Positions 2,805-24,460 of a DNA stretch of 32,700 nt are shown here, piece after piece. The first letter of the stretch is position 1. The number at the start of each line of letters is the position of its first letter. A program made the translations under genes and the position numbers. The DNA comes from a bacterium (lineage in GTDB: Bacteria; Myxococcota_A; UBA9160; UBA6930): assembly GCA_024228115.1 (NCBI GenBank), contig JAAETT010000376.1, positions 1 through 32,700 on the forward strand. The letters run 5' to 3'. Below the pieces are notes generated by a model, which searched no databases, was not told where the DNA came from, and worked only from the letters and a program-made list of their open reading frames with translations.

Positions 2805-2870
2805 CGAATGGGAGTCCATCTGAACTAGCTGCTCATGTCCGCAGGTAGTTAGCCGTCGAGGTGCGCAGGC

Positions 2871-4585: not shown

Positions 4586-4587
4586 CA

Positions 4588-6531: not shown

Positions 6532-6547
6532 CGGGTCGAGTGCACTA

Positions 6548-8755: not shown

Positions 8756-10285
8756 TTATTCGACAGGTACGGTGAGGCTAGGCTTGTAGCCCCCGCCTTC
8801 AAGGCCCTCGAAGTCGAACTCGTACAGGGTGATGTGTCCGCCGCCCTTGGCGAGCTGGCCGAGCATGAACATCAACGCGTTCGGCGCGGCGGCAAAGATG
8901 TGAAGTCGCGCCGCGCGTTCGCGGATCGAGCGAGCCTTCAGGCGGCGGGCGAGTTCGTCAGCGATTGCGATTGCGTGGTTCGAGTCGCGAACCGCGCTTT
9001 GGCCGGTCCCTTCGCGGGGTTGGGCGGCGATGATGCGGCCGATCCCCGGGGACGATTCCGTTAGGAACTGCTCGACGTCGGGCGTGACGTCGTGGGTGAT
9101 GCCGAGGGCAAGGGCTACGTCGTCGCCTTCGCCAGCCGAGATTTCTTGGATCGAGAGGTCCGCGCCTGCTGCTTTGCCGCCGGTGGCCGTTGACCAAACC
9201 TGCACACCGCCTCGAGAGCTTTGCACGAGGCTAATGTCAAGCCCTTGTTTTGCGTCGAGAAGGTAGCCGGCGACAAAGGCGAGGCTGGCGTGAGCATCGA
9301 GGTGTAGCCGAAACACACGGTGTGCAGCCACGATCCGCCGAAAGAACTCGTCCATCCTTGCGTGAACTGAGCCCCAGGACTCGTCAGGGAGAAGGAACCG
9401 TCCGTCGAAGGCGTCGAGAAGACAAAGTAGATCATCCGACTGGTTAGCGAGCTCAACGCCAGGGCGTTTGAAGCTGCGTACTCCGACAGTGTGCGGCGCC
9501 GGTGAGGGAGGCGAGATCTCTGTGGCAAGGCCCGCCTGCTCGCACTCCCTCATGAGCGAATCGGCCGAGAAGTAGTAGGTCCCCTCTTGATGAAGCTTCC
9601 AGATGAGGTCGTCGTACGGTGCCACAGCACCCTCGCCCCTGGTCGCTCGAAGGCCCACGGCCGGGAGTAGGCGGTCGAGCTCGTCTTGGACGCGTCGCAA
9701 GTCTGGAGCCGCAGACCAGATGCGGAGGGGCCGAAGGAGCTCGAAGAGCTCTTGGTCGGACGCAAGCTCGAGGTGCTCGCGCCATCTGGTGCGGAGCTTC
9801 CCCATCGCAGATCGAGCTCCGCCACGCTGAAGGAGCGACATTCGGATTGCTCCGCCCTGACTGTTGTCTACGAGTTTCGCCAACGGGTCGTCGCGGGCGA
9901 CTGGATAGGTCGAGACGAAGTGAAAACGAGCATGGGCCACGCGCTCGCCGAGCTGGTCACGCAGCTTCTGCATGCGGCCAAGAAGCGAAATCGCGGTCGC
10001 TCCAATCTCCGCGGGATTCGTCAGCGTCTCAGCGGTCAGAGCGCCGGTCTGGTCAACATGGAACTTCACCTGAAAGTAGTCGAAGGAAAACAGGTCGCCG
10101 AACTCTCCGCGCTGTGGCTGAGCGTGTTCGATTACAACGTCGTCGAACCCAGGAATGTCGGGGACGTCAAATCCGATTCGCGCGACGGTGCCATCGCGGT
10201 GTAGCAGCGCTGTCGCTGCCTGCAGCCAGAAGAAGCGCGCCTGGTAGTCAAGGCCCGCTTGGATCGGGTCGACGCTTCGGCTCAA
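8756..10285 (-). CDS. cap4: CBASS effector Cap4: endonuclease domain plus SAVED sensor domain
   Basis: This 509-residue protein is the likely killing effector of the CBASS operon. The N-terminal domain (about 1-210) has AGLDYQARFFW, an acidic pair D48-D49 and QVK at 72-74, the DUF4297-type PD-(D/E)XK nuclease pattern. The C-terminal part (about 330-509) fits a SAVED domain, ending in a HIFAAAPNALMFMLGQ block and an LYEFDFE strand. In the family, SAVED binds a cyclic oligonucleotide and activates dsDNA cleavage. The start must be TTG at 10285: an in-frame TAG lies about 45 nt upstream and no other start codon lies between. It is last in the operon, 106 bp beyond cap6. Its stop faces the helicase gene. 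Confidence 0.88.
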   Translation of the reverse strand: MSRSVDPIQAGLDYQARFFWLQAATALLHRDGTVARIGFDVPDIPGFDDVVIEHAQPQRGEFGDLFSFDYFQVKFHVDQTGALTAETLTNPAEIGATAISLLGRMQKLRDQLGERVAHARFHFVSTYPVARDDPLAKLVDNSQGGAIRMSLLQRGGARSAMGKLRTRWREHLELASDQELFELLRPLRIWSAAPDLRRVQDELDRLLPAVGLRATRGEGAVAPYDDLIWKLHQEGTYYFSADSLMRECEQAGLATEISPPSPAPHTVGVRSFKRPGVELANQSDDLLCLLDAFDGRFLLPDESWGSVHARMDEFFRRIVAAHRVFRLHLDAHASLAFVAGYLLDAKQGLDISLVQSSRGGVQVWSTATGGKAAGADLSIQEISAGEGDDVALALGITHDVTPDVEQFLTESSPGIGRIIAAQPREGTGQSAVRDSNHAIAIADELARRLKARSIRERAARLHIFAAAPNALMFMLGQLAKGGGHITLYEFDFEGLEGGGYKPSLTVPVE

Positions 10286-10391
10286 TTCTTCGCACCGTAC
10301 CCCTGCGCCGCCAGATTGGGGCGAACACTAGCAAGGCGCTCCCCGACGGCTCGACGAGGAGAGGGCAGACGTAGAGCTCGCGAACAGCTAC

Positions 10392-11330
10392 TCAAGGGTG
10401 CTCCTCCCGAAACGGCGGCGTTGGCGCCAGGCCGTCGGCGACCGCAAGGGCACGCGTAGGCGTCACAGGGTGATTCGGATATGCGTCGAGGGCGATTGCG
10501 GGCAGCAGGCGCTGGACAAGGTCCGAGAAGGTGAAGCCGTAGTCTCTCCCGTTCTGGCGACCAGTTGCAGCGACGATCGCATCGATCTGCTGCGGGGAGA
10601 AATCTAACGGAGAGAGCGCATTTGCGAGGACTGCCCGTCGCTGGGCTGCGTTGGGCCGCTGGAACGTCAGTACATCGGCCGCGCGGCGTCTCACTGCCGG
10701 GTCAAGAGCACCAAGACGGTTCGTGCACATGATAACCGCTGCGGGCGCCTTGCTGTTGGCGATCCGGTCCACGCCGCGGATGAACGCATTCACCCCTGCG
10801 CGGTCCTCGTGGTGCATTTGCGCGTTCTCCCGCGATTGGGCTAGGGCGTCGGCCTCGTCAACTAGGAGGATGACAGCTCCGCGTGCGGTACCGGAGGAGG
10901 ACATGAGCTTGCGCGCCTCATCGAGTGTGGCGTCGAACGCTGCGGAGAGAAGCTTCGTCATCTCGCCCACTCGCCCTTGACCTCGCGTCGAGAGGCTGAG
11001 CGGTAGGAGGGTGATGTCGATCTTCTCCTGGCGCGCAACCGCATCGCCGATGGTCTCGGCGAGCTCCGTCTTTCCTGAGCCTACGTCGCCTGCGAGGACG
11101 ATTAGCGGGGGACGCGACAAGACCACGTCGAGAAGTGCACCAGCGTGCGCGTGATGCTGTTTGGCCCAAGTCGCGAGACCCTGCGGGTTCACAAGAAGGC
11201 CGAGGATCTTGGTTAGGCGGTCCTTGTGGTCGTCGAGGCCGACAAGGCGCCCAAGCCTCTCCTGGGCGTCGCTGTCGGGAAGGTCGATACGATTCTCGAA
11301 GAGGTCGTCGAAGGAGAGATCGGACGACAT
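10392..11330 (-). CDS. cap6: CBASS Cap6: TRIP13/Pch2-like AAA+ ATPase
   Basis: This 312-residue AAA+ ATPase has Walker A GDVGSGKT (81-88), Walker B with D158-E159, sensor-1 N204 after VIMCT, and an arginine-finger region in LDPAVRRRA. In type III CBASS the TRIP13-like ATPase pulls apart the HORMA-cyclase complex and so switches off signalling; this role is taken from the family and its neighbours. The stop of the HORMA gene overlaps the start as TGATG. ATG 11330 is chosen, and an in-frame GTG at 11333 would add one residue. Position directly after a HORMA gene is strong support over a generic AAA+ assignment. Confidence 0.9.
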   Translation of the reverse strand: MSSDLSFDDLFENRIDLPDSDAQERLGRLVGLDDHKDRLTKILGLLVNPQGLATWAKQHHAHAGALLDVVLSRPPLIVLAGDVGSGKTELAETIGDAVARQEKIDITLLPLSLSTRGQGRVGEMTKLLSAAFDATLDEARKLMSSSGTARGAVILLVDEADALAQSRENAQMHHEDRAGVNAFIRGVDRIANSKAPAAVIMCTNRLGALDPAVRRRAADVLTFQRPNAAQRRAVLANALSPLDFSPQQIDAIVAATGRQNGRDYGFTFSDLVQRLLPAIALDAYPNHPVTPTRALAVADGLAPTPPFREEHP

Positions 11331-11845
11331 CACGAGGCCTTCACGCTTTGCCGATCAAGCGACCGGCCGCCTGCGGAGTAGATTCGATCGGAACGCAGGA
11401 CCCCGTTCACGGCGGGCTCCGGGGCGGATCCGCGCGTGATAGGGAGCTTTGACTCGAAGGTCTGCTGGTCGGCCGAGGAGAGCTGGTCCCATGCCGCGCT
11501 GTAGGTCAAGTAGCTGTAGAACGTGGCGCCGCTCGTATCGGCTCCGGGGCGAACGCGCCCCGGGTCATCATCGTCGGTGGTTGACCCGGCGAGATCGTGC
11601 GCGGTGTACCGGAGCGACGGCTCGATGAACGCTCCATCCCTGCGGAAGCCGTAGGTGACGGTCCCGAGATAGCCCTCCCTGAGGAGCTGAGTGACTTCGT
11701 CTTGGTAGGCGGTGATGGCGGCATCGCTGGGCTGGCCGTAGAAGCGCTGGAGACGTTTGAGGTCCGCCGCGACCTTCGCCGCCATATGTCTGGCGTGGGT
11801 GATCGTGAAGGTATCGGTCTCGGAGAACGTGTAGCTCGTCGTCAT
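11330..11845 (-). CDS. cap7: CBASS Cap7: bacterial HORMA-domain regulator
   Basis: This 171-residue protein starts MTTSYTFSETDTFTITHARH and continues with AADLKRLQRFYGQPSD, matching the bacterial HORMA family-1 N-terminus as I know it. In type III CBASS the HORMA protein closes around a peptide, then binds and activates the cyclase. The middle and C-terminal strands (TVTYGFRRDG, FYSYLTYS) fit the family, but I cannot verify the safety-belt region by eye. ATG at 11845 lies 9 nt after the cyclase stop, and its stop overlaps cap6, so the three genes are co-translated. There is one HORMA gene only, as in CdnC-type rather than two-HORMA operons. Confidence 0.88.
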   Translation of the reverse strand: MTTSYTFSETDTFTITHARHMAAKVAADLKRLQRFYGQPSDAAITAYQDEVTQLLREGYLGTVTYGFRRDGAFIEPSLRYTAHDLAGSTTDDDDPGRVRPGADTSGATFYSYLTYSAAWDQLSSADQQTFESKLPITRGSAPEPAVNGVLRSDRIYSAGGRSLDRQSVKAS

Positions 11846-11854
11846 GGTCGTGTT

Positions 11855-12820
11855 CTATGCCTGGAAGGAGGAGCCGAAGACCTTCTGCCAGTAGTAGACG
11901 GTCTCCTGCTTGGTGGGGGCCGCGAGGGCCGCATCGATGGCGTCACCTGCGTCAAGAGCGGCATCAACGAGCGCATCCGCCTGCGAGGACGTGTAGAGGC
12001 GGCTCACGTTGTTCTTTGCGTTGACCGGGTCGATGATCTGAATGCGCTCCGAGAACGTGCCGCAAGCGGATGGGCTGTAGTAGTCCGAGAACACGAGGCG
12101 TTCGCGCAGGTCGGTTTTTGCGATGTAGGTGAAGAAGTTCTGGAGCGCCTCGGGATAGTCGGAGAAGGCGGAGCCCTGGTCCGAGAGCCTCGCGAGGATG
12201 AGCTCGATCATGAACGACTTCAGGCGGAAGCCTTCGTTCTCGCGCTTGGTCTTGCGTGCCCAGTACTTCACGAGCCGGACAACCTGGGCGAAGTCCTTGT
12301 CATGCTTGCCCTTGCGAGCCCCGACGAACTCCAGGTGCCGTGGGATGCAAGTTTCAAGGAGGGAGCCGTCTTCCTGGCTGACCAGGTTCCCGTACCAGTT
12401 CGGGTCGCCGCTGTACAAGATGGGTACGACGTCGACGTCAAGCCCCGAGGCACGAAACGACACCGTCACGCAGTAGGTCTGAGGCGTGATCTGGTCGGGG
12501 CTGAAGTTTGGGAACGCCGTCCGCAGACGCTCAGCGAGGTAGTCGAGGAGCTTGGCGACCTCCGTGGGGGCGTCGGCGCCTTCGATGTAGCACGCGAGGT
12601 CTATGTCGTTCAGCGATCTGAGCGCGGTCCCCTTCGCGAGGCTCCCCGAGACCAGCATCTTCTTGAGGGAGAAGTCGGGATGCTCCTCGAGGTACGACTC
12701 GAGCTTTTCGCGCAGCCTGCGAGCCTGCGCCCGATGCTCGTTCGCTTTTTCCTGGGGGAGGTTGACCTTATCCTGGGCAAAGGACGCAAGGTCCGCGTGG
12801 TCGACGTGCTGGCGTGCCAA
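11855..12820 (-). CDS. cdnC: CBASS CD-NTase, CdnC-type cyclic oligonucleotide synthase
   Basis: This 321-residue nucleotidyltransferase has the cyclase signature GSLAKGT starting at residue 59, D72-I-D74, and a third metal aspartate in GLDVDVV (D128/D130). Closely similar CdnC enzymes make cyclic tri-adenylate-type signals when activated by a HORMA protein; the product here is not known. The start is TTG at 12820. It gives MARQHVDHADL, which lines up with the CdnC N-terminus as I recall it, and it is preceded by GGAG with 5 nt spacing. A start at 12883 would add 21 residues that look unlike the family. The cyclase leads the operon cdnC-cap7-cap6-cap4. Confidence 0.92.
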   Translation of the reverse strand: MARQHVDHADLASFAQDKVNLPQEKANEHRAQARRLREKLESYLEEHPDFSLKKMLVSGSLAKGTALRSLNDIDLACYIEGADAPTEVAKLLDYLAERLRTAFPNFSPDQITPQTYCVTVSFRASGLDVDVVPILYSGDPNWYGNLVSQEDGSLLETCIPRHLEFVGARKGKHDKDFAQVVRLVKYWARKTKRENEGFRLKSFMIELILARLSDQGSAFSDYPEALQNFFTYIAKTDLRERLVFSDYYSPSACGTFSERIQIIDPVNAKNNVSRLYTSSQADALVDAALDAGDAIDAALAAPTKQETVYYWQKVFGSSFQA

Positions 12821-13144
12821 GGCTGCTCCATCGTGGCCGCGTCGGCCCCGAGGGGATGACGCGGTAGCTGGTTCTGGACGCATAGCCCCCCGGCGTGACG
12901 CATGTGGTCACGCCAAGAAGCTTCGATTTGGGGGGATGCGCCCAGCGTCGCCGGGGACGGAACGGAGCTGGCCTCTCTCACCCTCTGTCGCCGTGGGAGG
13001 CTCACGACCCAGTGTCTCTGTGCACCGAGTGGAGTGTTGTCAAGCCGCGCGTTGGCGGAGGGGAGGAGATCTGCAACTCCATCGGCAACTATCTGAAATT
13101 GATACATGTTTCGGATCAAGACGTTTACTGCGGAATGAGGGCCT
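12821..13144. other. Gene-free stretch upstream of the CBASS operon
   Basis: No credible gene is seen in these 324 bp. It should hold the cdnC promoter on the minus strand. A perfect TTGACA lies at 13038-13043 (minus), but its -10 position reads poorly. The part from about 13085 to 13140 is more AT-rich and has TTGAT/ATCAA as a short inverted pair. It separates the defence island from the sigma-54 activator whose end is cut short at 13145. Confidence 0.5.
12892..12914. promoter_or_regulatory. Perfect 8-bp inverted repeat, candidate operator for CBASS
   Basis: GGCGTGAC at 12892-12899 is mirrored by GTCACGCC at 12907-12914 across 7 nt. It lies about 70-95 nt upstream of the cdnC TTG. The arm length and spacing suit a dimeric repressor or a hairpin in the leader. 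No regulator gene sits in the operon, so any binding protein is unknown. Confidence 0.4.
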
Positions 13145-14383
13145 TTAGTTGTAGAGCCCCTCGCGAGTAATCCCGAGCGCGCGCGCAGTGGCCGCTCGTC
13201 TTCCGTCGTGTCGGTCGAGTGCCTGGCGAAGGAGCCAGGCTTCGGCCTGGGTCAGGCTTTCGCGCAGGGTCGCGCCGCCTTCGAGGCCTTGGCTTTCGAT
13301 CGGGCCGAGGACCTGGTGCAGGCGTGCGGAGAGGCGTTCGGCGGGGATGAGATCCCCGCTCTCGGAGAGGGCGAGGGCACGCTGCATCTCGTTCTCGAGC
13401 TCGCGCACGTTGCCGGGCCAGGGATGGGAGAGGAGCAACCGTTCGGCTTCCGGCCTCAGGTCGCAGCCGATCCGGTTCTCGCGCTTTCCATGCAGGGCGA
13501 GGAAGTGGCGGGCCAGGGGGAGGACGTCTTCGCTGCGGCTGCGAAGCGGCGGAACATCGATCGGGAAGACGGCGAGGCGGTAGAACAGATCTTCGCGGAA
13601 CGCGCCGCGGGCGATTTCGCTGCGGAGATCGCGGTGGGTTGCGGCGAGCACCCGGGCGTCGACGCGTCGGGAGCGGTTTCCGCCGACGGGTCGGATTTCC
13701 CGTTCCTGGAGGACGCGCAGGAGCTTGACCTGGAGGATGGGGGAGGTCTCACCGATTTCGTCGAGGAAGATGGTTCCGCCGCTGGCCTCCTGGAAGAGGC
13801 CGGTCTTCGCGCGGTCGGCCCCGGTGAAGGCGCCCCGAACGTGGCCGAAGAGTTCGCTTTCGAGGAGTGAATCGGGAAAGGCTGCGCAGTTGAGGCCGAC
13901 GAAAGGCCCGTCGGCCCGATCACTTCCGATGTGGATCGAACGCGCGAGCACTTCCTTGCCGGTTCCGGTTTCTCCGGTGAGTAACACGGTGGCATGGGTG
14001 CGCTGGGCGTGGCCCACCAGTTCGAAGGTTCGATGCATCGCGGGGCCGCGACCGATCACATGGGCGAGCCCCGGCGGCCGCGCGGAAGCGGCCGGGCCAT
14101 TATTGTCCGGTTTGCCCAGGTCGGCGGGGGTGGGGTAGGTGCCTGGCGACGAGGTGACGAGCACCCGTCTTGCGCCGGCCTGGAGCAAGCGTCGGACGAC
14201 GCCGTCGCGGGTTTCGTCGGGAGCGTCCATGACGACGGCATGAAAGTCCGGCAGCGGGAGGGAAAGGGCGTCGTCGAGAACCGGGGTCCAGACCAGGTCG
14301 ACGTCGGGAGAAGTAGCCATCGGGCTCTCTTCCAGCCCGTTGGCGGTTCCGATCCACAAGACGGTATGCGGCGTTTCGTTCAT
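13145..14383 (-). CDS. Sigma-54-dependent transcriptional activator (NtrC family), C-terminally shortened
   Basis: This 412-residue bacterial enhancer-binding protein has three parts. Residues 1-85 are a short receiver-like domain with D53 at the expected phosphoacceptor place but no clear N-terminal acidic pair. The AAA+ domain has Walker A GETGTGKE (137-144), GAFTGA (184-189, the sigma-54 contact) and Walker B D208-E209. A Fis-type helix-turn-helix closes the protein. It stops after GITREGLYN, about eight residues before Fis-type domains normally end (usually a K-L-K-R-like tail), so the recognition helix is clipped. ATG 14383 is chosen because GAGGAA precedes it by 7-8 nt and upstream sequence in frame is not protein-like. 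The stop marks the edge of the defence island. Confidence 0.87.
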   Translation of the reverse strand: MNETPHTVLWIGTANGLEESPMATSPDVDLVWTPVLDDALSLPLPDFHAVVMDAPDETRDGVVRRLLQAGARRVLVTSSPGTYPTPADLGKPDNNGPAASARPPGLAHVIGRGPAMHRTFELVGHAQRTHATVLLTGETGTGKEVLARSIHIGSDRADGPFVGLNCAAFPDSLLESELFGHVRGAFTGADRAKTGLFQEASGGTIFLDEIGETSPILQVKLLRVLQEREIRPVGGNRSRRVDARVLAATHRDLRSEIARGAFREDLFYRLAVFPIDVPPLRSRSEDVLPLARHFLALHGKRENRIGCDLRPEAERLLLSHPWPGNVRELENEMQRALALSESGDLIPAERLSARLHQVLGPIESQGLEGGATLRESLTQAEAWLLRQALDRHDGRRAATARALGITREGLYN

Positions 14384-14422
14384 CGGGGATTCCTCGTGAA
14401 GAAGGGACGAACGCCTGGCAAC

Positions 14423-14650: not shown

Positions 14651-14666
14651 AGCCCGCCGACGGGCT
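14651..14666 (-). terminator. Short hairpin at the LysM gene stop
   Basis: AGCCCG and CGGGCT form a 6-bp perfect stem around a 4-nt loop that overlaps the TAG stop of the LysM gene. There is no T-tract, so terminator function is weakly supported. Confidence 0.25.
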
Positions 14667-15213
14667 AGGGCAGGGTCAGGATCTGGCCGGGGATGAGCCG
14701 GTCCGGATCCACGATCTGATCGCGATTGGCTTCCAGAATCGCAGCGGTATGCGCGGGCGAGCCGTACTGGTCTCGCGAGATCTGTGTGAGCCAATCGCCC
14801 TCGCGCACGGTGTACTGCCGCGGTCGATCTTCAGAGGGCACAGCCGGAGGAATCGTTACGGGCTCTGGATCAGCTGGCTCACTCGGAGCTGCTGCTTCGG
14901 GCTCGGGCAGTGCGCGCCCAGGAGTCGCGGCCGTTCGATAGGTCGGCGTCTGCAAGGAGTCGTCGGTGTCCGCGTCACGCTGCTCGGGTTCGGCCTTCTT
15001 GGCGGGCATGCCGGGCTCGCGCTGCTCCTCTTCGATCTCGACGATCAACACGTCGGGCCGCTCGCCGGGCGGAAGTGCGGGAGCCGAGACATCCGGTCGG
15101 TGTTCGGGTTGCGGAGAAGCGGGCGGCGCGCTTCGATGGGTGTCGCGCACGCAGGCAACGAATCCGACCATCGCAGCCGCCACGATCACAGCCGTTCTCG
15201 AAGCCGATCGCAC
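14665..15213 (-). CDS. LysM-domain envelope protein, probable lipoprotein
   Basis: This 182-residue protein has a short basic N-terminus, a hydrophobic stretch (about 7-20) and a cysteine at residue 21 in a FVAC context. That is an imperfect lipobox, so lipoprotein sorting is likely but not certain. Residues about 30-130 are a Pro/Glu-rich, low-complexity spacer. The last 50 residues are a LysM domain (YTVREGDWLTQIS ... IVDPDRLIPGQIL), which in known families binds peptidoglycan glycans. The GTG start at 15213 is chosen for its AGGGGGG Shine-Dalgarno and because it places the hydrophobic segment correctly; an ATG at 15270 would add 19 odd residues. It lies downstream of the repeat protein on the same strand. 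Confidence 0.82.
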   Translation of the reverse strand: MRSASRTAVIVAAAMVGFVACVRDTHRSAPPASPQPEHRPDVSAPALPPGERPDVLIVEIEEEQREPGMPAKKAEPEQRDADTDDSLQTPTYRTAATPGRALPEPEAAAPSEPADPEPVTIPPAVPSEDRPRQYTVREGDWLTQISRDQYGSPAHTAAILEANRDQIVDPDRLIPGQILTLP

Positions 15214-15316
15214 GTTCCCCCCTGAGTCCGATGCGCCGCCCTCGACGCGATCACCGCCAATGCGGCGCATCCGCGTTCGGGCATGCTCACCACACTTCCC
15301 AGGCCCCCCTGGAGTG

Positions 15317-18300
15317 CTAACGCCGTTCCCGCCAGAAGGGGTGAAAACGGCCGCAGCCGAGCTTACCCAGCGGGGTGCTCAAATCGGTGACGCCGCGCAC
15401 ATCGACGAGGGTCTGGCCTTCGAAGCAGCGATCCACCGTGCCGTCACGGGTCGAGTCTTCGCATTGAAGGGATACGGCCCCACCTTCGATGTATTGGATC
15501 ACGTCGGCACGGCCGTCTTTGTCGGTGTCGATCTCGCTCCGGCTGACGTGGCCGCCTTCGAAGAACTGGCGGATGTTGCCCTGGCCGTCACCGTTGTTGT
15601 CGATGAGGCCTTCGGTGATCGTGCCCCCCGACAACCGGTAGCGGATGTCGAGGCTTCGATTGGCGTCGCTGTCCACGCATTGACTGCGCGGGGCGCCGTC
15701 CGCACCGAGGACGACCTTCACGTCGGGGCGCTTCTTGCCCTCACTGACCAGCTCCTGGTGCGTGGGTGCGCCACTGGCATCGAAACGTGTGAGGACGGTC
15801 GGCCGGCCCGCCTGGCGCTGGTCTTGAGCCTGCCAGACCATGGCGCCGTTCTTCTGGTGGGACCACAGGTCGAACTTGCAGTCGGCGTTCTGGTCGACGG
15901 CTTGATTCGTAAGGTTGCCTGCGGCGTCGTAGCGTTCTTCGAGGTCGAAGCAGCCGCGCAGCTCGCGATCCTGGCGTACGAGGCTGGGTGTGCCGTCAGC
16001 GTTGAACTGCGTGAGCGAATCCTTCTTCCCGTCGAAGTTGCGATCCTCTTCCTGCCGGATCACCGAACCGTCCGCATTCCTCGTCACCCAGAGGTCCGGG
16101 TTGCCGTCCGCGTTGCGATCCTGGGTCTGCTCCTGGGTGCCCTTGGGCCCTAGCGCCACCTGGATTTCGAAGCTTCCGTCGAAATCGTCATCTTGCTCGA
16201 TGTGTGAGGGCTCGCCCTTCTCGAAGCGGGTGCGCACGTCGGGTTGGCCGTCGCCGTTGCGGTCGCGTTCGCTGCGGACGGGCGTACCGGCTTCCAACCA
16301 GGTCCTCATCTCGCGGGTTCCGTCGCCGTCGCCGTCCTCGGCAATCTCGATGGGCTGTTCGTCCGCTCCGAATGAGGTCTCGACATCCATCGTTCCGTCG
16401 AAGTTCCGATCTTCCTGCTGGGTGTGCTTCCGGCCGTCCTGGTAGGTGATGAGGATGTCCAGCTTGCCGTCGCCGTTGCCGTCCCGCTCCGAGCGCGTGG
16501 GCAGCCCCTGCTCCAGGTAGGTCGTCAGTTCGAATGTGCCGTCGAGATCTGCATCGTGTTCTTCACGAGAAACCGCGCCGCTCTCGTAGTGGCGGCGCAC
16601 GTCGGGCTGGCCATCCGCGTTGGTATCGGTCTCGTCGCGGACGGGAATCTCGTCCGGGCCGTAGAACACGATCTGGTCCACCTTGCCGTCGCCCGTGGTG
16701 TCTTTCTCCTGGCGGGCCCGGCGCCCATCTTCGAAGACCAGGAAGGTGTCCTTGTCGCCGCTCTCGTTGGTGTCGAGTTCCTGTCGAACCATCTTCCCGT
16801 CGCGGAAGAGGGTGATCGCATCGGGTTTCCCGTCGCCCGTCGTGTCGCGGAGCTCCCGCGCTTTCTGGCCGTCCTCGTATTCGACACTCACATCGAAGCC
16901 CTCGACCCCGCCGGTGGCGCGTTGCTCCGCGACGACCTGGCCCTTGGCGTCGAGACTGCCCTTCAGATCCGGCTGCCCATCGAAGTCTGAATCCTCTTCG
17001 AAGCGCACCGCCGTGCCGCCTTCGTAGAAGACCGTCCGGTCGGCTTCGCCGTCGGCGTTGCGATCCTCTTCGAGCTTCTCGGTCTGGCCTTCGGCGTTCT
17101 TGGTCACCCAGCGATCGACCTTGCCGTCGGCATCCGTGTCCTCGAGCACGCGGCGTTCATTGCCGGTCGCGACGTCCAGGGTGATGAACTTCTCGGAGTT
17201 CCCGTCTCCGTCGTTGTCCTGTTCCTGCTTCTCGAGCTGGCCCTTCGGGTCGTAGAAGTTGCGCAGCTCGAACTTCCCATCGCCATCTTCATCCAGATCG
17301 ACACGCAGGAGCCGGTCTTCCCCGTGGATCTCGATCCGGTCCGGCCGCCCTCGGCCGGCGCGGTCGATTTCGGTTCGCGCCAGCAGGCCGCCTTCGTAGC
17401 TGTTGCGGGTCTCGAAGGTGCCATCGAAATCGGTATCCAGTTGGCTCCGCAGCAGGGATTCGCCGTCGACGGCGTACTCGAAGACGGCATCGATCTCGCC
17501 ATCTTCGTTCTGGTCTTCTTTCTGTTCGAATCGGAGGCCGGCTTTGTATTCGACGAAGGTGTCTCTTCGTCCGTCCTTGTTCGAATCCGCCTCGGTCCGG
17601 AGGGTCATCTCGCCGGCGAACCAGGTCTCCAGGTCGACCCGGCCATCGTCGTCCTGGTCTTCCTCTTCGCGGGCCTTCTGGCCGTTCTCGTAGAAGCGGT
17701 GCAGATCCGTGCGCCCGTCATCGTCCGGGTCGAAGCTCTCCTCCGCACGTTCTCCGCTCGGCAGATACAGAACGATGGCTTCGGGCACGCCATCGAGATC
17801 TTCGTCTTTCACCTGGCGGTGCTCGTTGCCTTCATGGTAGGCCGATTCCGTATCGAATCGCCCGTCGCCCGTGGTGTCGGCCCGGCGAGCGGTGGTCTGG
17901 CCATTCCGGTAGTCGGTGACGACATCCACCTTTCCCGAGTGGTTCGTGTCCTCGTCCACGCGGGCCTTCTTGCCGTTCTCGTAGCGGATCGTGATATCGA
18001 AGCGGCCGTTGCCGTTCGTATCCTGTAGCTCGAGCTTCTTCGAGCCATCGGCATTGTATTCGGCACGGAGCTCCGGCTTGCGGTCTCCGTCCTGGTCTTC
18101 TTCGACGATCGAGGGCTCGCCGCCGGCGTAAGTGATGCGGCGCTCGATGGTTCCGTCGAAGTCCGGGTCTTCTTCCTTGCGCACGGGGATCCCGCCCTCG
18201 AAGAAGATCGTGGCGTCCGCATTGCCGTCAAAGTTGTGGTCGTCGCGTTGCTGGGCGGGTTTGCCGTTTTCGAAATCGATCCACTGGTCCTTGCGGCCGT

Positions 18301-18500
18301 CGGCGTTGGTATCCCTTTCCTGGTGTTTTGGTTTGCCCGAGGCATCGAATTGCATCCAGGTATCGATCTGGCCGTCGAAGCTGGTGTCCTGCTCGGCCGC
18401 GCTGGGCTTTCCGCCCGAGTAGGTGACGAACTCGTCATAGCGGCCGTCCCTGTTCGTATCGGATTTCTTCGAGCGCACGTTCTCGTCTTCGTCGAAATCC
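15317..18500 (-). repeat. Degenerate 72-bp tandem repeat array inside the repeat protein gene
   Basis: The DNA repeats with a period of about 72 bp (24 codons) through most of the gene. Recurrent codons for Asp-Gly-Asp loops show as gtcg/cgtc-rich blocks on the plus strand. Units differ in sequence, so the array is old and kept for protein function, not a recent expansion. Confidence 0.7.
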
Positions 18501-18598
18501 AGAACCGTAGGGAGACCCTGGGCGACGGCAGACGAGGGCATTGCGACGAAAACCGCGAGTACGAATGCGAGAGGAAGAAGAGCGCTAGTTCGAGACAA
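15317..18598 (-). CDS. Secreted protein of about forty calcium-loop-like tandem repeats
   Basis: This 1093-residue protein has a signal peptide (about 1-27, hydrophobic core LPLAFVLAVFVAM, cleavage after AVA). Nearly all of the rest is a repeat of about 24 residues. Each unit has an Asp-rich loop of the DxNxDGxxD type followed by a short strand ending in G-x-P/K and charged residues. The loops resemble EF-hand, dockerin or thrombospondin type 3 calcium sites, so a calcium-stiffened rod at or beyond the outer membrane is inferred; no enzymatic domain is seen. Start TTG 18598 overlaps the TonB-like gene by 14 bp and is the only start giving a full signal peptide, although no clear ribosome site precedes it. 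The overlap suggests coupling with the transducer. Confidence 0.78.
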   Translation of the reverse strand: MSRTSALLPLAFVLAVFVAMPSSAVAQGLPTVLDFDEDENVRSKKSDTNRDGRYDEFVTYSGGKPSAAEQDTSFDGQIDTWMQFDASGKPKHQERDTNADGRKDQWIDFENGKPAQQRDDHNFDGNADATIFFEGGIPVRKEEDPDFDGTIERRITYAGGEPSIVEEDQDGDRKPELRAEYNADGSKKLELQDTNGNGRFDITIRYENGKKARVDEDTNHSGKVDVVTDYRNGQTTARRADTTGDGRFDTESAYHEGNEHRQVKDEDLDGVPEAIVLYLPSGERAEESFDPDDDGRTDLHRFYENGQKAREEEDQDDDGRVDLETWFAGEMTLRTEADSNKDGRRDTFVEYKAGLRFEQKEDQNEDGEIDAVFEYAVDGESLLRSQLDTDFDGTFETRNSYEGGLLARTEIDRAGRGRPDRIEIHGEDRLLRVDLDEDGDGKFELRNFYDPKGQLEKQEQDNDGDGNSEKFITLDVATGNERRVLEDTDADGKVDRWVTKNAEGQTEKLEEDRNADGEADRTVFYEGGTAVRFEEDSDFDGQPDLKGSLDAKGQVVAEQRATGGVEGFDVSVEYEDGQKARELRDTTGDGKPDAITLFRDGKMVRQELDTNESGDKDTFLVFEDGRRARQEKDTTGDGKVDQIVFYGPDEIPVRDETDTNADGQPDVRRHYESGAVSREEHDADLDGTFELTTYLEQGLPTRSERDGNGDGKLDILITYQDGRKHTQQEDRNFDGTMDVETSFGADEQPIEIAEDGDGDGTREMRTWLEAGTPVRSERDRNGDGQPDVRTRFEKGEPSHIEQDDDFDGSFEIQVALGPKGTQEQTQDRNADGNPDLWVTRNADGSVIRQEEDRNFDGKKDSLTQFNADGTPSLVRQDRELRGCFDLEERYDAAGNLTNQAVDQNADCKFDLWSHQKNGAMVWQAQDQRQAGRPTVLTRFDASGAPTHQELVSEGKKRPDVKVVLGADGAPRSQCVDSDANRSLDIRYRLSGGTITEGLIDNNGDGQGNIRQFFEGGHVSRSEIDTDKDGRADVIQYIEGGAVSLQCEDSTRDGTVDRCFEGQTLVDVRGVTDLSTPLGKLGCGRFHPFWRERR

Positions 18599-19721
18599 GG
18601 GTGTTCGAGAAAGTGCCGATGAGGTTGTGATTGGCGAGGCAGCGAACCTGGGCGCCCATGTGCGGGAAGGGCGATGCTGCGAGCAGCGCATCCACGGCGG
18701 ATCTTGCCGCCGCAGGATCCGAAGGCGTGCCCTGGAACTCCACGTGGCTGGCCGAGCCTGCGGGATCGATGCGGAAGGCAAGGGTGGCCGATGAATCGGT
18801 CACGCCGGTCGGCAACGTCCAGCGACTGATGGTGCGATCCCGTACCTGGCTCAGATAGGCCTGGACCTGGGGCCGGGCGAGGCAGGCGTCGAGGCTCAGG
18901 TTGTTGAGGCCGGTTCCGGACCCGCCCGGGCCTCGACCGTTGTTGCTTCCCACTTTCATGTTCGGGTTGGCAACGATCCCGGTCTTCGCCCCGAACACAT
19001 CGCGGCCGGACGAGATGCCGTCACGAACGCTCGAGCCTCGCCCGAGGGAATCTGGCCGGCCCGTCCCCAGGGTGTTGCCGGAACTGACGACCTGTCGCGG
19101 GCCGCTCACCACACCGGTCGGTGCCTGGTGTTGGATGGGGCCGGCGAGGGCGGGGCCCTGGTAGTTGGTGACGACCGGCGCGACGACGGCGCTGACGACA
19201 GACGCGACGTTGCCGACCTGGTCCACCGAGACCGCGCGTTGGCTGATCTCGACGGGTGCGGCCGTGGGGACGACGGCCGCGGTATTGATCTCGACCGCCT
19301 GGGTCTTCTGGCTCATGTTCTGGATGACCGCGGCGTTCACGATCTGCGGTGCCATGGCCATGGGTGCCGGAGCGTAGTTCGCGGAGCTTTCGGCAAGCAC
19401 TTGCGGAGCCGGGGCAGGCTCTTCCTCGCCGACGACCTCCTCAATCGGGACGAAATCCAGGACCGGAACCTCTTCTTCTTCCACGATGCGGCTGGCGAGG
19501 AAGAGCAGGAGACCGATCATCAAGCCGTGGCCGAGCAGCGAGATCACGCCGGAGAGCCAGCTGCGCGTGCCTCCCTCGGGCTCGGGCATATCCGAACCGG
19601 GGAATGCGATCTCTCCGCCCGCGGCACCTGCACCGGCTAGCGAGCCGATTCCGCCGATGCGGCGGGTGTGCATCGGGTGCAGGCGCCTCGCACGCCGACG
19701 AACGACGAAGCCTTCGATCAC
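18585..19721 (-). CDS. TonB-like energy transducer
   Basis: This 378-residue protein has a cytoplasmic basic N-terminus and one membrane segment (about 56-79, GVISLLGHGLMIGLLLFLAS). A long Ala/Pro/Val/Gly-rich periplasmic linker (about 80-285) follows. The last 90 residues fit a TonB C-terminal-like domain (VRDRTISRWTLP ... ATLAFRIDPAGSASHVEFQG), with cysteines near both ends that could form a disulphide. It should carry proton-motive force from an ExbB/ExbD motor to an outer-membrane or surface partner. GTG 19721 is preceded by GGGGGA at about 8 nt. It diverges from exbB-exbD, and its 3' end overlaps the repeat-protein gene. The linker lacks the usual Lys-Pro repeats, so it is not classical TonB. 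Confidence 0.78.
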   Translation of the reverse strand: MIEGFVVRRRARRLHPMHTRRIGGIGSLAGAGAAGGEIAFPGSDMPEPEGGTRSWLSGVISLLGHGLMIGLLLFLASRIVEEEEVPVLDFVPIEEVVGEEEPAPAPQVLAESSANYAPAPMAMAPQIVNAAVIQNMSQKTQAVEINTAAVVPTAAPVEISQRAVSVDQVGNVASVVSAVVAPVVTNYQGPALAGPIQHQAPTGVVSGPRQVVSSGNTLGTGRPDSLGRGSSVRDGISSGRDVFGAKTGIVANPNMKVGSNNGRGPGGSGTGLNNLSLDACLARPQVQAYLSQVRDRTISRWTLPTGVTDSSATLAFRIDPAGSASHVEFQGTPSDPAAARSAVDALLAASPFPHMGAQVRCLANHNLIGTFSNTLVSN

Positions 19722-19993
19722 GACACATTCCCCCAGGTCTGAACTCTCGGAACCCGAAGGTTGTGACGTGGTTCCGACCCATGCTGCCGCTCTAGGAGAG
19801 GCTGCGGGAGAATCTCGCTCAGAAGAAGGCAGGGAAGACGCAAGTTACCGGCACCATTGTGGATTTTCTGACCCAAGTTCGATCCTATGTGAGCCACCCG
19901 GGGGTGTCAACGTGGCACTCACGTAGGTAAGGTAGGTCGACTTTCAGCCCGGTTGGTGTCAGTGGGTCCACCCCCGGAACGGAGAAATACACC
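19722..19993. promoter_or_regulatory. Divergent promoter region between the TonB-like gene and exbB
   Basis: These 272 bp separate two divergent operons and must hold both promoters. Ribosome sites are clear at both ends (GGGGGA for the minus gene, GGAG for exbB). A weak plus-strand box pair, TTTTCT-N16-TATGTG, lies near 19870-19900. No strong consensus promoter was seen, and no gene. Confidence 0.4.
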
Positions 19994-20692
19994 GTGAACA
20001 TGGAATTGAAAGACCTCCTGGAGCTGTTGCACCAGGGGCGCCTCACCGTTTATCCGCTTGGCATCTTGTCGGTGATCGTGATCGGCATCGCCATCGAGCG
20101 GTTCTGGCGGTATCGGGGGTTGGCTCGCACCACGCGGGATCTGACGCGAAAGCTCGTGGATAGCCTCGTGCGCCACGATCTCTCGGCGGCGCGCACGCTT
20201 TGCGAGGCCTCGAGCACGCCGATGGCCGAGGTTTTCGGCGAGGGACTGCGCTGGCGGAACATCGCATTGGAAGACCTGAACGAGGTTCTGAGCACCGCAC
20301 GCAATGAGGTGGTGACGGAACTTCGCCGCGGGCTCTGGTTCATCGGAACGATCGGATCCCTCTCGCCCTATATCGGTTTGCTGGGCACCGTGGTCGGCAT
20401 CATGGTCGCGTTCGGCGCCATCGCCTCGAGCGGAGACGCTGGTTTCGAGGTCGTTTCCGCCGGTATCTCGGAGGCGCTGATCGCCACGGCCGTGGGCCTG
20501 CTCGTGGCTATCGTTTCCCTCGCGTTGTTCAACTTCCTGCAGGTACGGGTCAACAACATCTCGTCCACGTTCACGCGGGCCAGCGAGCGCTTCGTTCAGG
20601 CGCTGCTCTTCGTCGAGGCTGGAACCAACGATTCGGCCAATGACCAAGAAGGGAAGCCGAGCCATGGCGCTCTCTCTCCCGCAAGAGGGTGA
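19994..20692 (+). CDS. exbB: MotA/TolQ/ExbB family proton channel protein
   Basis: This 232-residue inner-membrane protein shows the ExbB layout: membrane segment 1 near residues 17-36, a cytoplasmic stretch, then two helices, one in the SPYIGLLGTVVGIMVAF block and one in ALIATAVGLLVAIVSLALFNF. It forms the proton channel that with ExbD drives a TonB-type protein. GTG 19994 is preferred over ATG 20000 because GGAG lies 9 nt upstream of it. It overlaps exbD and diverges from the TonB-like gene, which is its most likely partner. TolQ is possible, but no TolA, TolB or Pal gene is near. Confidence 0.9.
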   Translation: MNMELKDLLELLHQGRLTVYPLGILSVIVIGIAIERFWRYRGLARTTRDLTRKLVDSLVRHDLSAARTLCEASSTPMAEVFGEGLRWRNIALEDLNEVLSTARNEVVTELRRGLWFIGTIGSLSPYIGLLGTVVGIMVAFGAIASSGDAGFEVVSAGISEALIATAVGLLVAIVSLALFNFLQVRVNNISSTFTRASERFVQALLFVEAGTNDSANDQEGKPSHGALSPARG

Positions 20693-21083
20693 TGATACCG
20701 GCGGCATCGTCGCCGAGATCAACATCACCCCGCTGACAGACGTCTTCCTCGTCCTGCTGATCATCTTCATGGTGACGTCTTCGGTCATCGCGAACACGGG
20801 CAAGCAGGTGAGCCTGCCCGAAGCTTCCGTGAGCAGCGCGACCGACAAGCAGGCCGTGAATGTGACGATCACCGAGGCCGGCGAAGTCCAGGTCAACGGA
20901 AGGAGCGTGCCCTACGACCAGCTTGGCCCGCACCTGAAGGTTGCCCTCGATGCCGCCGAGCAGAAGACCGTGATCCTCCGAGGTGATCGGATGGTCATCC
21001 TCGAAAAGGCCGTCTACGTCCTCGACCAGGCCCAGCTCAACGGAGCCAAGGGCTTCGCCCTGGCGACCAAGAAAGCGAAGTAG
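20664..21083 (+). CDS. exbD: ExbD/TolR family biopolymer transport protein
   Basis: This 139-residue protein has one membrane helix (about 22-45, ITPLTDVFLVLLIIFMV) carrying the essential aspartate D26, then a periplasmic domain of ExbD type. D26 takes part in proton passage through the ExbB channel. ATG 20664 is chosen because AGAAGGG lies about 10 nt upstream; an ATG at 20640 would add 8 residues and has no ribosome site. It overlaps exbB by 29 bp, showing tight coupling. A perfect palindrome follows directly. Confidence 0.9.
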   Translation: MALSLPQEGDDTGGIVAEINITPLTDVFLVLLIIFMVTSSVIANTGKQVSLPEASVSSATDKQAVNVTITEAGEVQVNGRSVPYDQLGPHLKVALDAAEQKTVILRGDRMVILEKAVYVLDQAQLNGAKGFALATKKAK

Positions 21084-21121: not shown

Positions 21122-24100
21122 CTAGAACGTGTACCGGATTCGCAGGAAGAACTCGTCGCGATCTCTCACCGCAGCGAGGCCATTCTCCACGAAGTCCTTG
21201 TTGGCGTGGCGGCCGACTCGATTCGAAAGCGCGTTCGGCACGAGCGGCATCGTCCGGGCTTCTTCTCGTCCCTGGAAGAGCGCGAAGCCGAAGGTCACGG
21301 AGAAATCCGACGAGTATCGGTAGGTCACTTGACTGATGGCGGCACTCGAATTCGACTGGAAATCGTAGACGAGCTGCACGCTGGGGTTCAGACGGTCGTC
21401 GAAGTAGCCCGTGTTCACGGCGAGGACGGCCAGGATGTTCCACGGGCCGTTGGTCGGGAAGCTCTCCTCATAACCCGAGGTGTACCGGAAGAACCACTGG
21501 GTGTTGATGAAGAAGGTCCGGTTGGCGTTCATGAAGTTGATGAACGTGGGCCGATCGACGGAGACGGTCAGGTTGAATTGATCGACCTCGGTCAAGCCCT
21601 CGACCTTGTCCCAATCCGCCAGGTGGACGTCGTTCTCCCAGGTGAACTCGACGCCGATGTTGGACTTGGTGTAGTCCTCTGCGAAGTCCATCGCGAAGCC
21701 CAGGATGTTCCGCTTCTCGTAGCGCAAGACGAGATCGCGGCCCCCATGCCAGGTGAAATCGCGACGCCCGAATCGCCCGTTCCCACCGGCTCGGATCGCG
21801 TTGCGCTGGACACCGGTGATCTGGAAGAACGATTGCACCGAGCTGCAGAACTGGGGCTTGGCGAACGAGCAGCCGTTCCTGCGGAACGGATGGGCGGCAT
21901 CGAAATCGCTCTCGGTCGGTCGGAGCGGGTCATCCGCGCTCGATAGCGCGACGAGTGCCATCAACAGGTTCCAGGACAAGATGCCCAACTCGGTCCGGAA
22001 GGCCTGGCCAACGAAGGGGTGGAGCGCACCGCCGGTCGAGCCGTCCACGCGCGGGTCGTAGCCGGAATCGCCCGGGCCGCGGCAGCCGGGCAGGATGACC
22101 ATGCTGCCACCGTGGTAACGGGTGCAGATCGGGCCTCCTTCGAAGCCGACCGTGCCAGGCTGGATGACGCCCCGATCCGTCGTGTCCCAATCCATGCCGA
22201 AGGTGCCCTCGACTCCGGGAAAGGATTGGAAGAGCGCGCTGGCCTCGGCGTTCAGCAGGTCCATCCCCTCGATGTCGCAGTTGGTGTCGTAGTAGGGCCC
22301 GCAGCCGAGCAAGGCCTCCTGCTCGTCCGTGAGGAACGGCGACAGCCCGTTGCCCAGGAAAAAGTTCGAGAGACCAGGGACGGCGCCGCCTGCGATCAGC
22401 GCAGCCTGCACATCAGCCGGGTAGTCCGTGAACAGGGCTTGCGCACCGTCGGCCGGATCCATCCACAACGGCACGAACACCGTGGGATCGATGGTACCCG
22501 TGAGGAGGTTGGAAAAGACCCGGCCAAAGGGAGCGTTCGCGGTGATCGCTGCCAATGTGGTCGGGGTGAAGTTGCCCAATGCGGGAAGGAACACCGCCCC
22601 GCCAAAGAGGTTCCCAGCTCCGCTTTGTCCCGACCCCATGGCGCCGACGAGGCCCACCACCGGCAGCGGCGCCGACTGAAGGCCCGGTGTGGCGTCATCG
22701 GTATCCACCAGTGCATGGCTGTTGAACACGGACTGGCCGCAGGCACTGAGATCCAGGGTGCTGAAGCCGATGCTGGTGGCGCAGATCATCGTGAAGACCT
22801 GCTGGTTCACGCTATGCCGCGTGAGTGCGTCCTTGCCTTGCAGGCAGGCCGCCTCGCGCCCGGTCCGACAGCTTCCATCCGCCATGGTGTGGCGGGGGCG
22901 GCCGGTCTTCGGGTCGACGTTCCGGGAGTAACGGAACAGCGTGTCCTGATACGGCATGTCCGTGAAGCCGTAGTAGTCGCTCACAGCGAACGAGAAGCGG
23001 TTGTAACGCCACTCGACCCGGACGCCTGCCTCGACACCATGCCAGCTGTTCCACGGGTTGGGCGGGCGACGCTCGCCGGCGACGGTGAGGCCCGTGAGCC
23101 CGTGGATGAACAAGCCGAAGGTCTTGTCGCAGACCGGATTCGGCGCATAGGGCTCGCCGCAGCGTCCGAGATCCGTCGGCTCGAACTGATCCATCAGCAC
23201 GACCAGTTCGGCGCGCACGTCCTCGAGCGGACCGACACTCCAGAACGACCACACGGCCCGGCCAGCCCACAAGCCGATGCGCGAATCCTCGAGGCTCGGC
23301 AACGAAGCGAGTGCCAGATCCTGGGGGTTCCACTGGTCCTGGTTGCGGAAGAGCTCCGTCTTGCCCCACACCACGGTCTGCTTGCCCAGGCGTAGCCAGA
23401 GCCGACTATCGAAGGCTTCGATGTCGAAATAGAGCTCTTTCAGCGCCTTTTCGTCCTGCTGGCTCGCGCCCTGGTTCCACTGCAATTCGTTGACCGTGAA
23501 GTTCTGGTCGAAGCTGTCGAACCGACCGTCGCGAAGGGCCGCGGCCAGACGCTCGTTCGGGTAGTAGACGCCACGCGCCTCGTGCTTCGGTGCCCATTCA
23601 TCCGCGCGGCGTTCCGGAGCGGGGCGATAGGGGAGGGCGCCGGCGCCGACATCCCCGGTGATCGGCGAAAGATCCATCGAAGAGAACGGGTTGGGCTTGC
23701 CGGCGAGTTTTCCGGTGGGACGGATCGTGCAGGCCGGCTGCCAGGGGCCCATGATCTGGGTACCGACGCCATCCATGCTGCCATGCCGCTTGCGGAAATT
23801 GAAATCGCAATCGTCGGCCAGGATCTCGGAGAAGTAGAAGGGAGCGGGGTCGTCCTCGTTGCCGAACACGCCGTCGGCCCCCGGCGAATCGAAGAGCGTG
23901 TCGACGCCTTGGATGCTGAAGAACGGTGAAGCCACGCGGGAGCCGCGGTCGCGATCCCGGAAGCGGTAGGGAAGGAATTCCCGCGGAATGTCGCGGAAGT
24001 AGCGCTCGTCCCCGTTGTAGAGCTGGCCGGTGGACCGGAAGCCGGCCCTACGCCCATCCGAGAGCCGCTTGGGCTGGCGTTCAGGGCGATCGCCATACAC

Positions 24101-24460
24101 GGAGACATTGGGGAAAAGCCCACACCCTCGGCGCCAGACGCAGTCGTAGCGGCCCTCGACGCGTGCGAATGCCGAAATCAAGTCGAAGGGGCCCCATCCA
24201 TCGGGAGCAATGTTCGCCTCGATCTCGATGTTGAGGATGTTGTACCACTGCGTCAGGTCGAGGCCGTCGGACATGTCGAGATCGCGCGCAATCGTGCGCA
24301 GCTGCATCTCGAATGCACCGTGGACCTCCACGCGATCTTCGAGGAACTCGATGGCGTTGGCCGAAGAAGCGGCGGCCAGAAATGCCAAGGCCCCGAGCGC
24401 ACTCGTGACGCGCGCTCGAAGACCCGACTTCGCGAACGTATGGCGACAACCACCCAGCAT
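21122..24460 (-). CDS. DUF1302 family outer-membrane protein
   Basis: This 1112-residue exported protein has a signal peptide (about 1-37, core LGALAFLAAASSANA). The N-terminal third has strand-rich, aromatic text including GKQTVVWGKTELFRNQDQWN, and the C-terminal third is regularly alternating beta strands ending in FFLRIRYTF. The final Phe is the usual outer-membrane insertion signal. DUF1302 proteins are predicted beta-barrels often tied to hydrophobic substrate uptake or export; the substrate here is unknown. At 1112 residues it is longer than many relatives because of a Gly/Asn/Cys-containing middle insert (about 540-800). ATG 24460 has a strong GGAGGGG ribosome site. It converges on exbD. 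Confidence 0.85.
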   Translation of the reverse strand: MLGGCRHTFAKSGLRARVTSALGALAFLAAASSANAIEFLEDRVEVHGAFEMQLRTIARDLDMSDGLDLTQWYNILNIEIEANIAPDGWGPFDLISAFARVEGRYDCVWRRGCGLFPNVSVYGDRPERQPKRLSDGRRAGFRSTGQLYNGDERYFRDIPREFLPYRFRDRDRGSRVASPFFSIQGVDTLFDSPGADGVFGNEDDPAPFYFSEILADDCDFNFRKRHGSMDGVGTQIMGPWQPACTIRPTGKLAGKPNPFSSMDLSPITGDVGAGALPYRPAPERRADEWAPKHEARGVYYPNERLAAALRDGRFDSFDQNFTVNELQWNQGASQQDEKALKELYFDIEAFDSRLWLRLGKQTVVWGKTELFRNQDQWNPQDLALASLPSLEDSRIGLWAGRAVWSFWSVGPLEDVRAELVVLMDQFEPTDLGRCGEPYAPNPVCDKTFGLFIHGLTGLTVAGERRPPNPWNSWHGVEAGVRVEWRYNRFSFAVSDYYGFTDMPYQDTLFRYSRNVDPKTGRPRHTMADGSCRTGREAACLQGKDALTRHSVNQQVFTMICATSIGFSTLDLSACGQSVFNSHALVDTDDATPGLQSAPLPVVGLVGAMGSGQSGAGNLFGGAVFLPALGNFTPTTLAAITANAPFGRVFSNLLTGTIDPTVFVPLWMDPADGAQALFTDYPADVQAALIAGGAVPGLSNFFLGNGLSPFLTDEQEALLGCGPYYDTNCDIEGMDLLNAEASALFQSFPGVEGTFGMDWDTTDRGVIQPGTVGFEGGPICTRYHGGSMVILPGCRGPGDSGYDPRVDGSTGGALHPFVGQAFRTELGILSWNLLMALVALSSADDPLRPTESDFDAAHPFRRNGCSFAKPQFCSSVQSFFQITGVQRNAIRAGGNGRFGRRDFTWHGGRDLVLRYEKRNILGFAMDFAEDYTKSNIGVEFTWENDVHLADWDKVEGLTEVDQFNLTVSVDRPTFINFMNANRTFFINTQWFFRYTSGYEESFPTNGPWNILAVLAVNTGYFDDRLNPSVQLVYDFQSNSSAAISQVTYRYSSDFSVTFGFALFQGREEARTMPLVPNALSNRVGRHANKDFVENGLAAVRDRDEFFLRIRYTF

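What the first reader, a model, noticed from the sequence alone, without database searches (positions are those of the whole stretch)
14665..21083. Possible energised surface system: calcium-loop repeat rod, TonB-like protein, LysM protein and ExbBD
A 1093-residue secreted repeat protein overlaps a TonB-like transducer, followed by a LysM protein, with exbB-exbD divergent. A motor, a force transmitter, a wall anchor and a long Asp-rich rod together suggest adhesion, gliding or a mechanically driven envelope device rather than ordinary iron uptake, as no TonB receptor gene is present.
Basis: inference. Interest (0 to 1): 0.62.

Follow-up and report, generated by a model that had tools for sequence, protein, structure and literature searches.

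The report
Proton-powered envelope machine with calcium-loop rod
This stretch encodes a proton-driven inner-membrane motor, a force-transmitting arm and a long, probably calcium-stiffened protein rod, kept together across a whole class of uncultured bacteria related to myxobacteria, which suggests an undescribed machine that moves or braces the bacterial envelope.

Summary
In 66 of 73 genomes with the long repeat protein (REP), tonB lies directly upstream on the same strand; the other seven hits are partial or at contig ends. exbBD is divergent in nearly all fetched loci. One genus (nine genomes) lacks REP and tonB; the six searched also lack this ExbB, yet those checked keep tolB and 7-12 TonB receptors. 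The host (Myxococcota, class UBA9160 as inferred) has separate Tol-Pal, ExbB-ExbD-ExbD-TonB and MotAB systems, so this is a fourth proton-driven machine.
REP has a Sec signal peptide, a 24-residue DxDxDG repeat and a confident AlphaFold model (86 strands, pLDDT 89) like OspA's single-layer sheet: a periplasmic strut, not a proven surface rod. The arm ends in a TolA/TonB fold. In several members of a sister family the cluster also holds a vWA protein, an OmpA-type lipoprotein and a repeat lipoprotein; vWA is absent from exactly the same nine genomes.
LysM is not core. Shorter relatives in Desulfobacterota sit beside exbBD, often near TonB receptors, so an import role is not excluded. Best reading: Tol-Pal/Glt-like force transmission through a calcium-stiffened strut; cellular purpose unproven.

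The parts
15317..18598 (-). REP: 1093-aa exported protein of 24-25-residue DxDxDG repeats (about 43 repeats, 86 predicted strands); predicted extended single-layer beta-sheet strut
   Evidence: orthologues in 73 of 91 class genomes
18518..18598 (-). Sec (type I) signal peptide of REP; TTG start at 18598 overlaps the tonB stop by 14 nt
   Evidence: same layout in orthologues; 4-nt overlap in L066
18585..19721 (-). TonB/TolA-like transducer, 378 aa: TM helix 51-78 with invariant His65, about 195-residue disordered linker, TolA-III/TonB-type C-terminal domain 275-375
19994..20692 (+). exbB (TolQ/ExbB/MotA family motor subunit); groups with this genome's TolQ in the tree
20640..21083 (+). exbD (TolR/ExbD); invariant Asp34 in the transmembrane segment
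14665..15270 (-). LysM protein, 201 aa, N-terminal hydrophobic segment with a possible lipobox (FVAC); accessory, present only in some loci of the same family
13145..14395 (-). sigma-54 enhancer-binding regulator (NtrC-like); the start at 14395 is inferred; a homologue lies downstream of REP in many relatives; regulatory link unproven
   Evidence: no sigma-54 promoter found in the divergent region
21122..24460 (-). DUF1302-family outer-membrane protein, convergent with exbD; a neighbour, not a conserved part

Best explanation
A dedicated proton-driven force-transmission machine of the envelope, working like Tol-Pal or the force-transmitting part of Agl-Glt but built differently. ExbB-ExbD form the inner-membrane motor. 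The TonB/TolA-like protein docks on it through its His-bearing TM helix and crosses the periplasm by a disordered linker. Its TolA/TonB-type domain engages REP, a long single-layer beta-sheet strut in the periplasm whose DxDxDG turns bind calcium (or another divalent ion) and stiffen it. REP reaches the outer-membrane side and couples, probably through like-with-like repeat contacts, to a repeat-bearing lipoprotein, a vWA protein and a wall-binding OmpA lipoprotein encoded elsewhere in the genome, so that motor strokes pull on or reposition the outer membrane relative to the wall. Shown: gene content, order and conservation; joint absence of REP, TonB, ExbB and vWA in one genus; signal peptide by inspection; fold predictions. 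Inferred: complex formation, calcium binding, contact partners, cellular purpose.
For: Orthologous REP in 73/91 class genomes; 66 have tonB directly upstream. exbBD divergent in nearly all fetched loci. All nine g19 genomes lack REP and tonB; the six searched with ExbB have no window-type ExbB; vWA is absent from exactly these nine and present in the other 82. Of six g19 genomes checked, all keep tolB and 7-12 TonB receptors. In five f9 genomes OmpA-vWA-exbB-exbD and tonB-REP-lipoREP form one cluster. The host has separate TolQ+TolB, ExbB-ExbD-ExbD-TonB and MotAB. TonB His65 is invariant in 23 sequences; ExbD Asp34 in 21. The transducer C-terminal domain matches TolA (TMt 0.82, 2x9a_B) and TonB. 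REP model pLDDT 89, 86 strands; best VIA match is engineered OspA, Z 10.7, rmsd 9.3 over 275 residues. ExbB tree: module ExbBs group with the genome's own TolQ (99/96); f9-type and Desulfobacterota ExbBs lie in separate clades, as if the motor had been exchanged while its REP partner stayed.
Against: No physical interaction, localisation or phenotype is known. The joint absence is in one genus and may be a single event. G192 lacks REP and TonB but has vWA (fragmented genome). The lipoREP/vWA/OmpA locus is unlinked to the module in most families. In Desulfobacterota shorter REP relatives sit with exbBD, tonB and often a TonB receptor, which fits import. pTM of the REP model is 0.37, so its overall shape is uncertain; VIA matches at Z 8-11 with rmsd about 9 A show a common arrangement, not kinship.
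Confidence: 0.5

Rival explanations
1. Import accessory: the module is a specialised Ton system that energises uptake of one substrate, with REP as a periplasmic scaffold or metal-binding shuttle for a TonB-dependent or DUF1302-type outer-membrane protein encoded nearby or elsewhere.
For: Shorter REP relatives in Desulfobacterota lie directly beside exbB-exbD, with a tonB-like gene in most, and a TonB receptor in at least seven loci; L172 is a compact operon TBDT - Mo/TP-methylase - tonB - dREP - exbB - exbD - FmdE. A DUF1302 gene is next to exbD in the window. Asp-rich loops could carry metal.
Against: No receptor is found in the class-wide locus; the DUF1302 gene is not conserved there; the genome has a separate ExbB-ExbD-ExbD-TonB; g19 lacks the module yet checked members keep 7-12 receptors; f9 clusters hold OmpA, vWA and a repeat lipoprotein instead.
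Confidence: 0.22
2. Gliding or adhesion engine, a functional analogue of the Myxococcus Agl-Glt focal-adhesion machine, with the vWA protein as the surface adhesin moved by the motor through REP.
For: TolQ-like motor plus TolA/TonB-domain arm plus vWA protein plus OmpA lipoprotein; a GldG-like ABC transporter beside exbD in many loci; the vWA adhesin CglB serves Myxococcus gliding (own knowledge; papers listed).
Against: Only one ExbD, and no Agl/Glt-specific gene identified at the locus; vWA has a signal-peptide-like start but no shown surface location; GldG-like transporters are not specific to gliding (own knowledge).
Confidence: 0.2
3. Structural calcium store or envelope stiffener that merely shares an operon with a Ton/Tol motor.
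For: Extreme Asp content (152 of 1066 residues, pI 4.4); short repeat proteins without any motor nearby in other Myxococcota.
Against: The long form keeps the motor and transducer with it across the class, relatives do so in a second phylum with another gene order, and the partner ExbBs belong to three clades.
Confidence: 0.08

Closest known systems
Tol-Pal (TolQRAB-Pal)
   Same: TolQ/TolR-type motor, TolA-III-like arm, exported periplasmic partner encoded next to the arm, wall-binding lipoprotein linked by neighbourhood in f9
   Different: No TolB and no Pal at the locus; REP is an unrelated beta-strut; the genome has its own tolQ and tolB elsewhere
Ton system (ExbB-ExbD-TonB plus TonB-dependent receptor)
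   Same: ExbB, ExbD, TonB-like arm; Desulfobacterota relatives of REP lie in such operons
   Different: No receptor at the locus in this class; separate ExbB-ExbD-ExbD-TonB in the genome
Agl-Glt gliding machine of Myxococcus
   Same: TolQR-type motor, TonB-domain arm, a vWA protein as possible adhesin
   Different: One ExbD instead of two TolR-type proteins; no Agl/Glt gene identified; REP has no counterpart there that I know of
vWA force transducers described in the 2025 survey PMC12204202
   Same: vWA protein encoded beside a TolQR-like motor (in f9)
   Different: There the vWA domain replaces the TolA/TonB domain on a TM helix; here vWA seems to be a signal-peptide protein and a TolA/TonB-like arm is present as well
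Lsa25.6 family (NCBIfam NF050087); OspA single-layer sheet
   Same: Same type of repeat (NF050087, E 1e-20); same kind of extended single-layer sheet in the model
   Different: Score 74 against a cut-off of 150 and about five times longer; the OspA match is structural only

Membership tests
Tol-Pal | tolB and pal encoded with tolQRA | tested here: not met
   No TolB/Pal gene at the locus; TolB is elsewhere, next to TolQ on contig C425
Tol-Pal | TolA-like arm: TM helix, linker, domain III fold | tested here: met
   (fold shared with TonB, so not discriminating)
Ton system | ExbB, ExbD and a TonB-type protein with the motor-docking His | tested here: met
Ton system | TonB-dependent receptor served by this TonB | tested here: inconclusive
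   None seen at the class-wide locus; the genome has five elsewhere and a second TonB
Agl-Glt gliding machine | TolQ plus two TolR proteins (AglRQS) | tested here: not met
   One exbD only
Agl-Glt gliding machine | Glt periplasmic and outer-membrane proteins, CglB adhesin | not tested
   No Glt/CglB profile was searched; vWA gave no specific family
Lsa25.6 family adhesin (NF050087) | Score over the curated cut-off of 150 | tested here: not met
   74.2 bits
vWA force-transducer class (PMC12204202) | vWA domain tethered by a motor-docking TM helix | tested here: inconclusive
   Two vWA proteins start with a signal-peptide-like segment; no TM prediction was run on them

The most novel reading that the evidence does not exclude
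An undescribed trans-envelope machine in which a TolQR-type motor and TolA-like arm drive a roughly 40-nm calcium-dependent periplasmic beta-strut that moves a vWA/OmpA/repeat-lipoprotein complex at the outer membrane, used for surface movement or adhesion, and which has exchanged its motor at least once during evolution.
Probability: 0.28. Interest if true: 0.8.

Novelty: new variant of a known kind. Interest (0 to 1): 0.6.

Why it matters
Only a few kinds of machine are known to carry proton energy to the outer membrane (Tol-Pal, Ton, Agl-Glt, T9SS/gliding; own knowledge), and a recent survey says that more remain to be discovered (PMC12204202). This one is conserved through a whole class known here only from MAGs, is missing as a unit in one genus, has a distinctive Ca-loop strut, and names its likely partners, so it can be tested directly.

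Tried and rejected
DUF1302 protein as the motor's target: beside exbD in the window and L138 only; other relatives have a GldG-like ABC transporter or other genes there. LysM as the wall anchor: not in most loci. Module as the genome's only Tol or Ton: both exist separately. Sigma-54 control of the divergent promoter by the neighbouring regulator: no site better than chance in 22 intergenic stretches. Short repeat proteins as parts of the same unit: 18 loci of other Myxococcota show no ExbBD/TonB hit within the stretch fetched. The full 25-row REP alignment was too diverse for a collection scan; a 12-row one worked. Rhs/YD kinship: Foldseek local match, prob 1.0 but TM 0.11 and rmsd over 50 A, so shared hairpin geometry only. 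VIA lists no calcium-binding or MORN fold, which excludes nothing. A literature search for ExbB, TonB, EF-hand and repeat protein together found no paper.

Full report
What is there. The repeat protein (REP) most likely starts at the TTG at 18598, giving 1093 residues, a 14-nt overlap with the tonB stop and a standard-looking Sec signal peptide. The mature protein (1066 aa, pI 4.4, 152 Asp) has a period of 24-25 residues and 28 strict DxDxDG-type loops against 0.4 expected in shuffles.

Where it occurs. Named relatives from a collection scan are Myxococcota/Deltaproteobacteria MAGs, including UBA9160; I infer the GTDB class UBA9160 from that name. In 91 genomes of the class, 73 hold REP at E <= 1e-60 and 66 of these have the TonB-like gene directly upstream on the same strand; the seven others are hits that start at a contig's first bases or are partial. 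exbB-exbD lies divergent from tonB in nearly all fetched loci; some fetched contigs end before it. The neighbourhood in many genomes reads purA-serA, a GldG-like ABC transporter, exbD-exbB, tonB-REP, then in some metabolic genes and a sigma-54 activator. The LysM gene appears only in part of the window's family. Short repeat proteins in other Myxococcota do lack a motor nearby (18 loci).

Joint absence. All nine genomes of genus g19 lack REP and tonB. The six of them searched with the window ExbB have no window-type ExbB, only weaker TolQ-like and other matches. Of six g19 genomes checked, all keep tolB and 7-12 TonB-receptor plugs. A second, unlinked locus is affected as well: the vWA protein is found in 82 of 91 genomes and is absent from exactly those nine. 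This is one genus, so possibly one event; G192 lacks REP and TonB but has vWA.

Partners. In five f9 genomes (L066, L135, L205, L206, L207) everything lies in one cluster: M28 peptidase, OmpA-type lipoprotein, vWA, exbB, exbD, and facing them tonB, REP and a lipoprotein with the same repeats. Elsewhere OmpA-vWA (with lipoREP convergent in L202 and L209; vWA and lipoREP in L208) lies apart from the module. The window's own genome has OmpA-vWA on contig C82 (L204). The OmpA protein passes the YiaD glycine-zipper/OmpA lipoprotein cut-off.

Structure. AlphaFold gives REP mean pLDDT 88.9 with 86 strands and no long helix, pTM 0.37. Foldseek's best matches are Rhs/teneurin hairpin ribbons, local only (TM 0.11). 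VIA's best are engineered OspA single-layer sheets, Z 10.7, rmsd 9.3 over 275 residues. By sequence only EF-loop proteins such as lanmodulin match (E about 3e-5 to 5e-5). At 4.8 A a strand, 86 strands would make a sheet of about 40 nm (inference). The transducer has one TM helix with invariant His65, a disordered linker and a confident domain matching TolA and TonB C-termini.

Other motors. The genome has four MotA/ExbB-family proteins: TolQ near tolB, an ExbB-ExbD-ExbD-TonB set, MotAB, and this one. In the ExbB tree the module proteins group with this genome's TolQ (99/96), while f9-type and Desulfobacterota ExbBs form separate clades; long branches make deep placement unsure. I read this as exchange of the motor with REP kept.

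Desulfobacterota. A 633-aa relative in a Desulfobacterales MAG led to 15 of 198 phylum genomes with such proteins. Of 15 stretches fetched, all but L169 (whose contig ends in the repeat gene) show exbB-exbD beside it on the same strand (in L179 the repeat protein matches in pieces); a tonB-like hit is seen in eleven, plus L172 by Pfam, and a receptor in six, plus L104. L172 is TBDT - Mo/TP-methylase - tonB - dREP - exbB - exbD - FmdE, with dREP overlapping the tonB-like gene by 4 nt. Whether dREP and REP are orthologous or share only the repeat type is not settled.

Reading. The strongest facts are the constant grouping of motor, arm and strut, the joint absence, and the f9 cluster with wall- and membrane-bound partners. 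They favour force transmission (0.5) over import (0.22) and over a specific motility or adhesion role (0.2). Nothing here shows location, calcium binding or phenotype. Closest in the literature is the 2025 survey of periplasmic force transducers, which describes vWA transducers beside TolQR-like motors and says that further motor-driven systems remain to be found (PMC12204202).

Noticed in passing
window 8756-12883 (-): Complete CBASS-like set: CD-NTase (SMODS), HORMA, TRIP13-like AAA, SAVED-PD(D/E)XK effector.
   Followed up: partly
window 45-8647 (+): Type III-like DNA methyltransferase, ABC-three-component / Lamassu-like LmuA-LmuC-LmuB genes and a UvrD-like helicase, beside the CBASS set: a defence island.
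   Followed up: partly
window 21122-24460 (-): 1112-aa DUF1302 outer-membrane protein, found next to exbD only in the window and one close relative (L138).
   Followed up: partly
L172 1337-13876: Desulfobacterota operon with TonB receptor, molybdopterin-oxidoreductase/TP-methylase fusion, tonB, repeat protein, exbB, exbD, FmdE, and a PBP-like binding protein nearby; may hint at molybdenum or tungsten uptake.
   Followed up: no
L043 13874-17018; many related loci: GldG-like (PF09822) protein and ABC ATPase convergent with exbD in about a dozen relatives.
   Followed up: partly
L202 2730-7671: Separate locus: M28 peptidase, OmpA lipoprotein, vWA protein, convergent repeat lipoprotein; vWA is absent from genus g19.
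   Followed up: partly
L066, L135, L205-L207: f9 genomes carry a phylogenetically different ExbB with the same REP and TonB, as if the motor had been swapped.
   Followed up: yes
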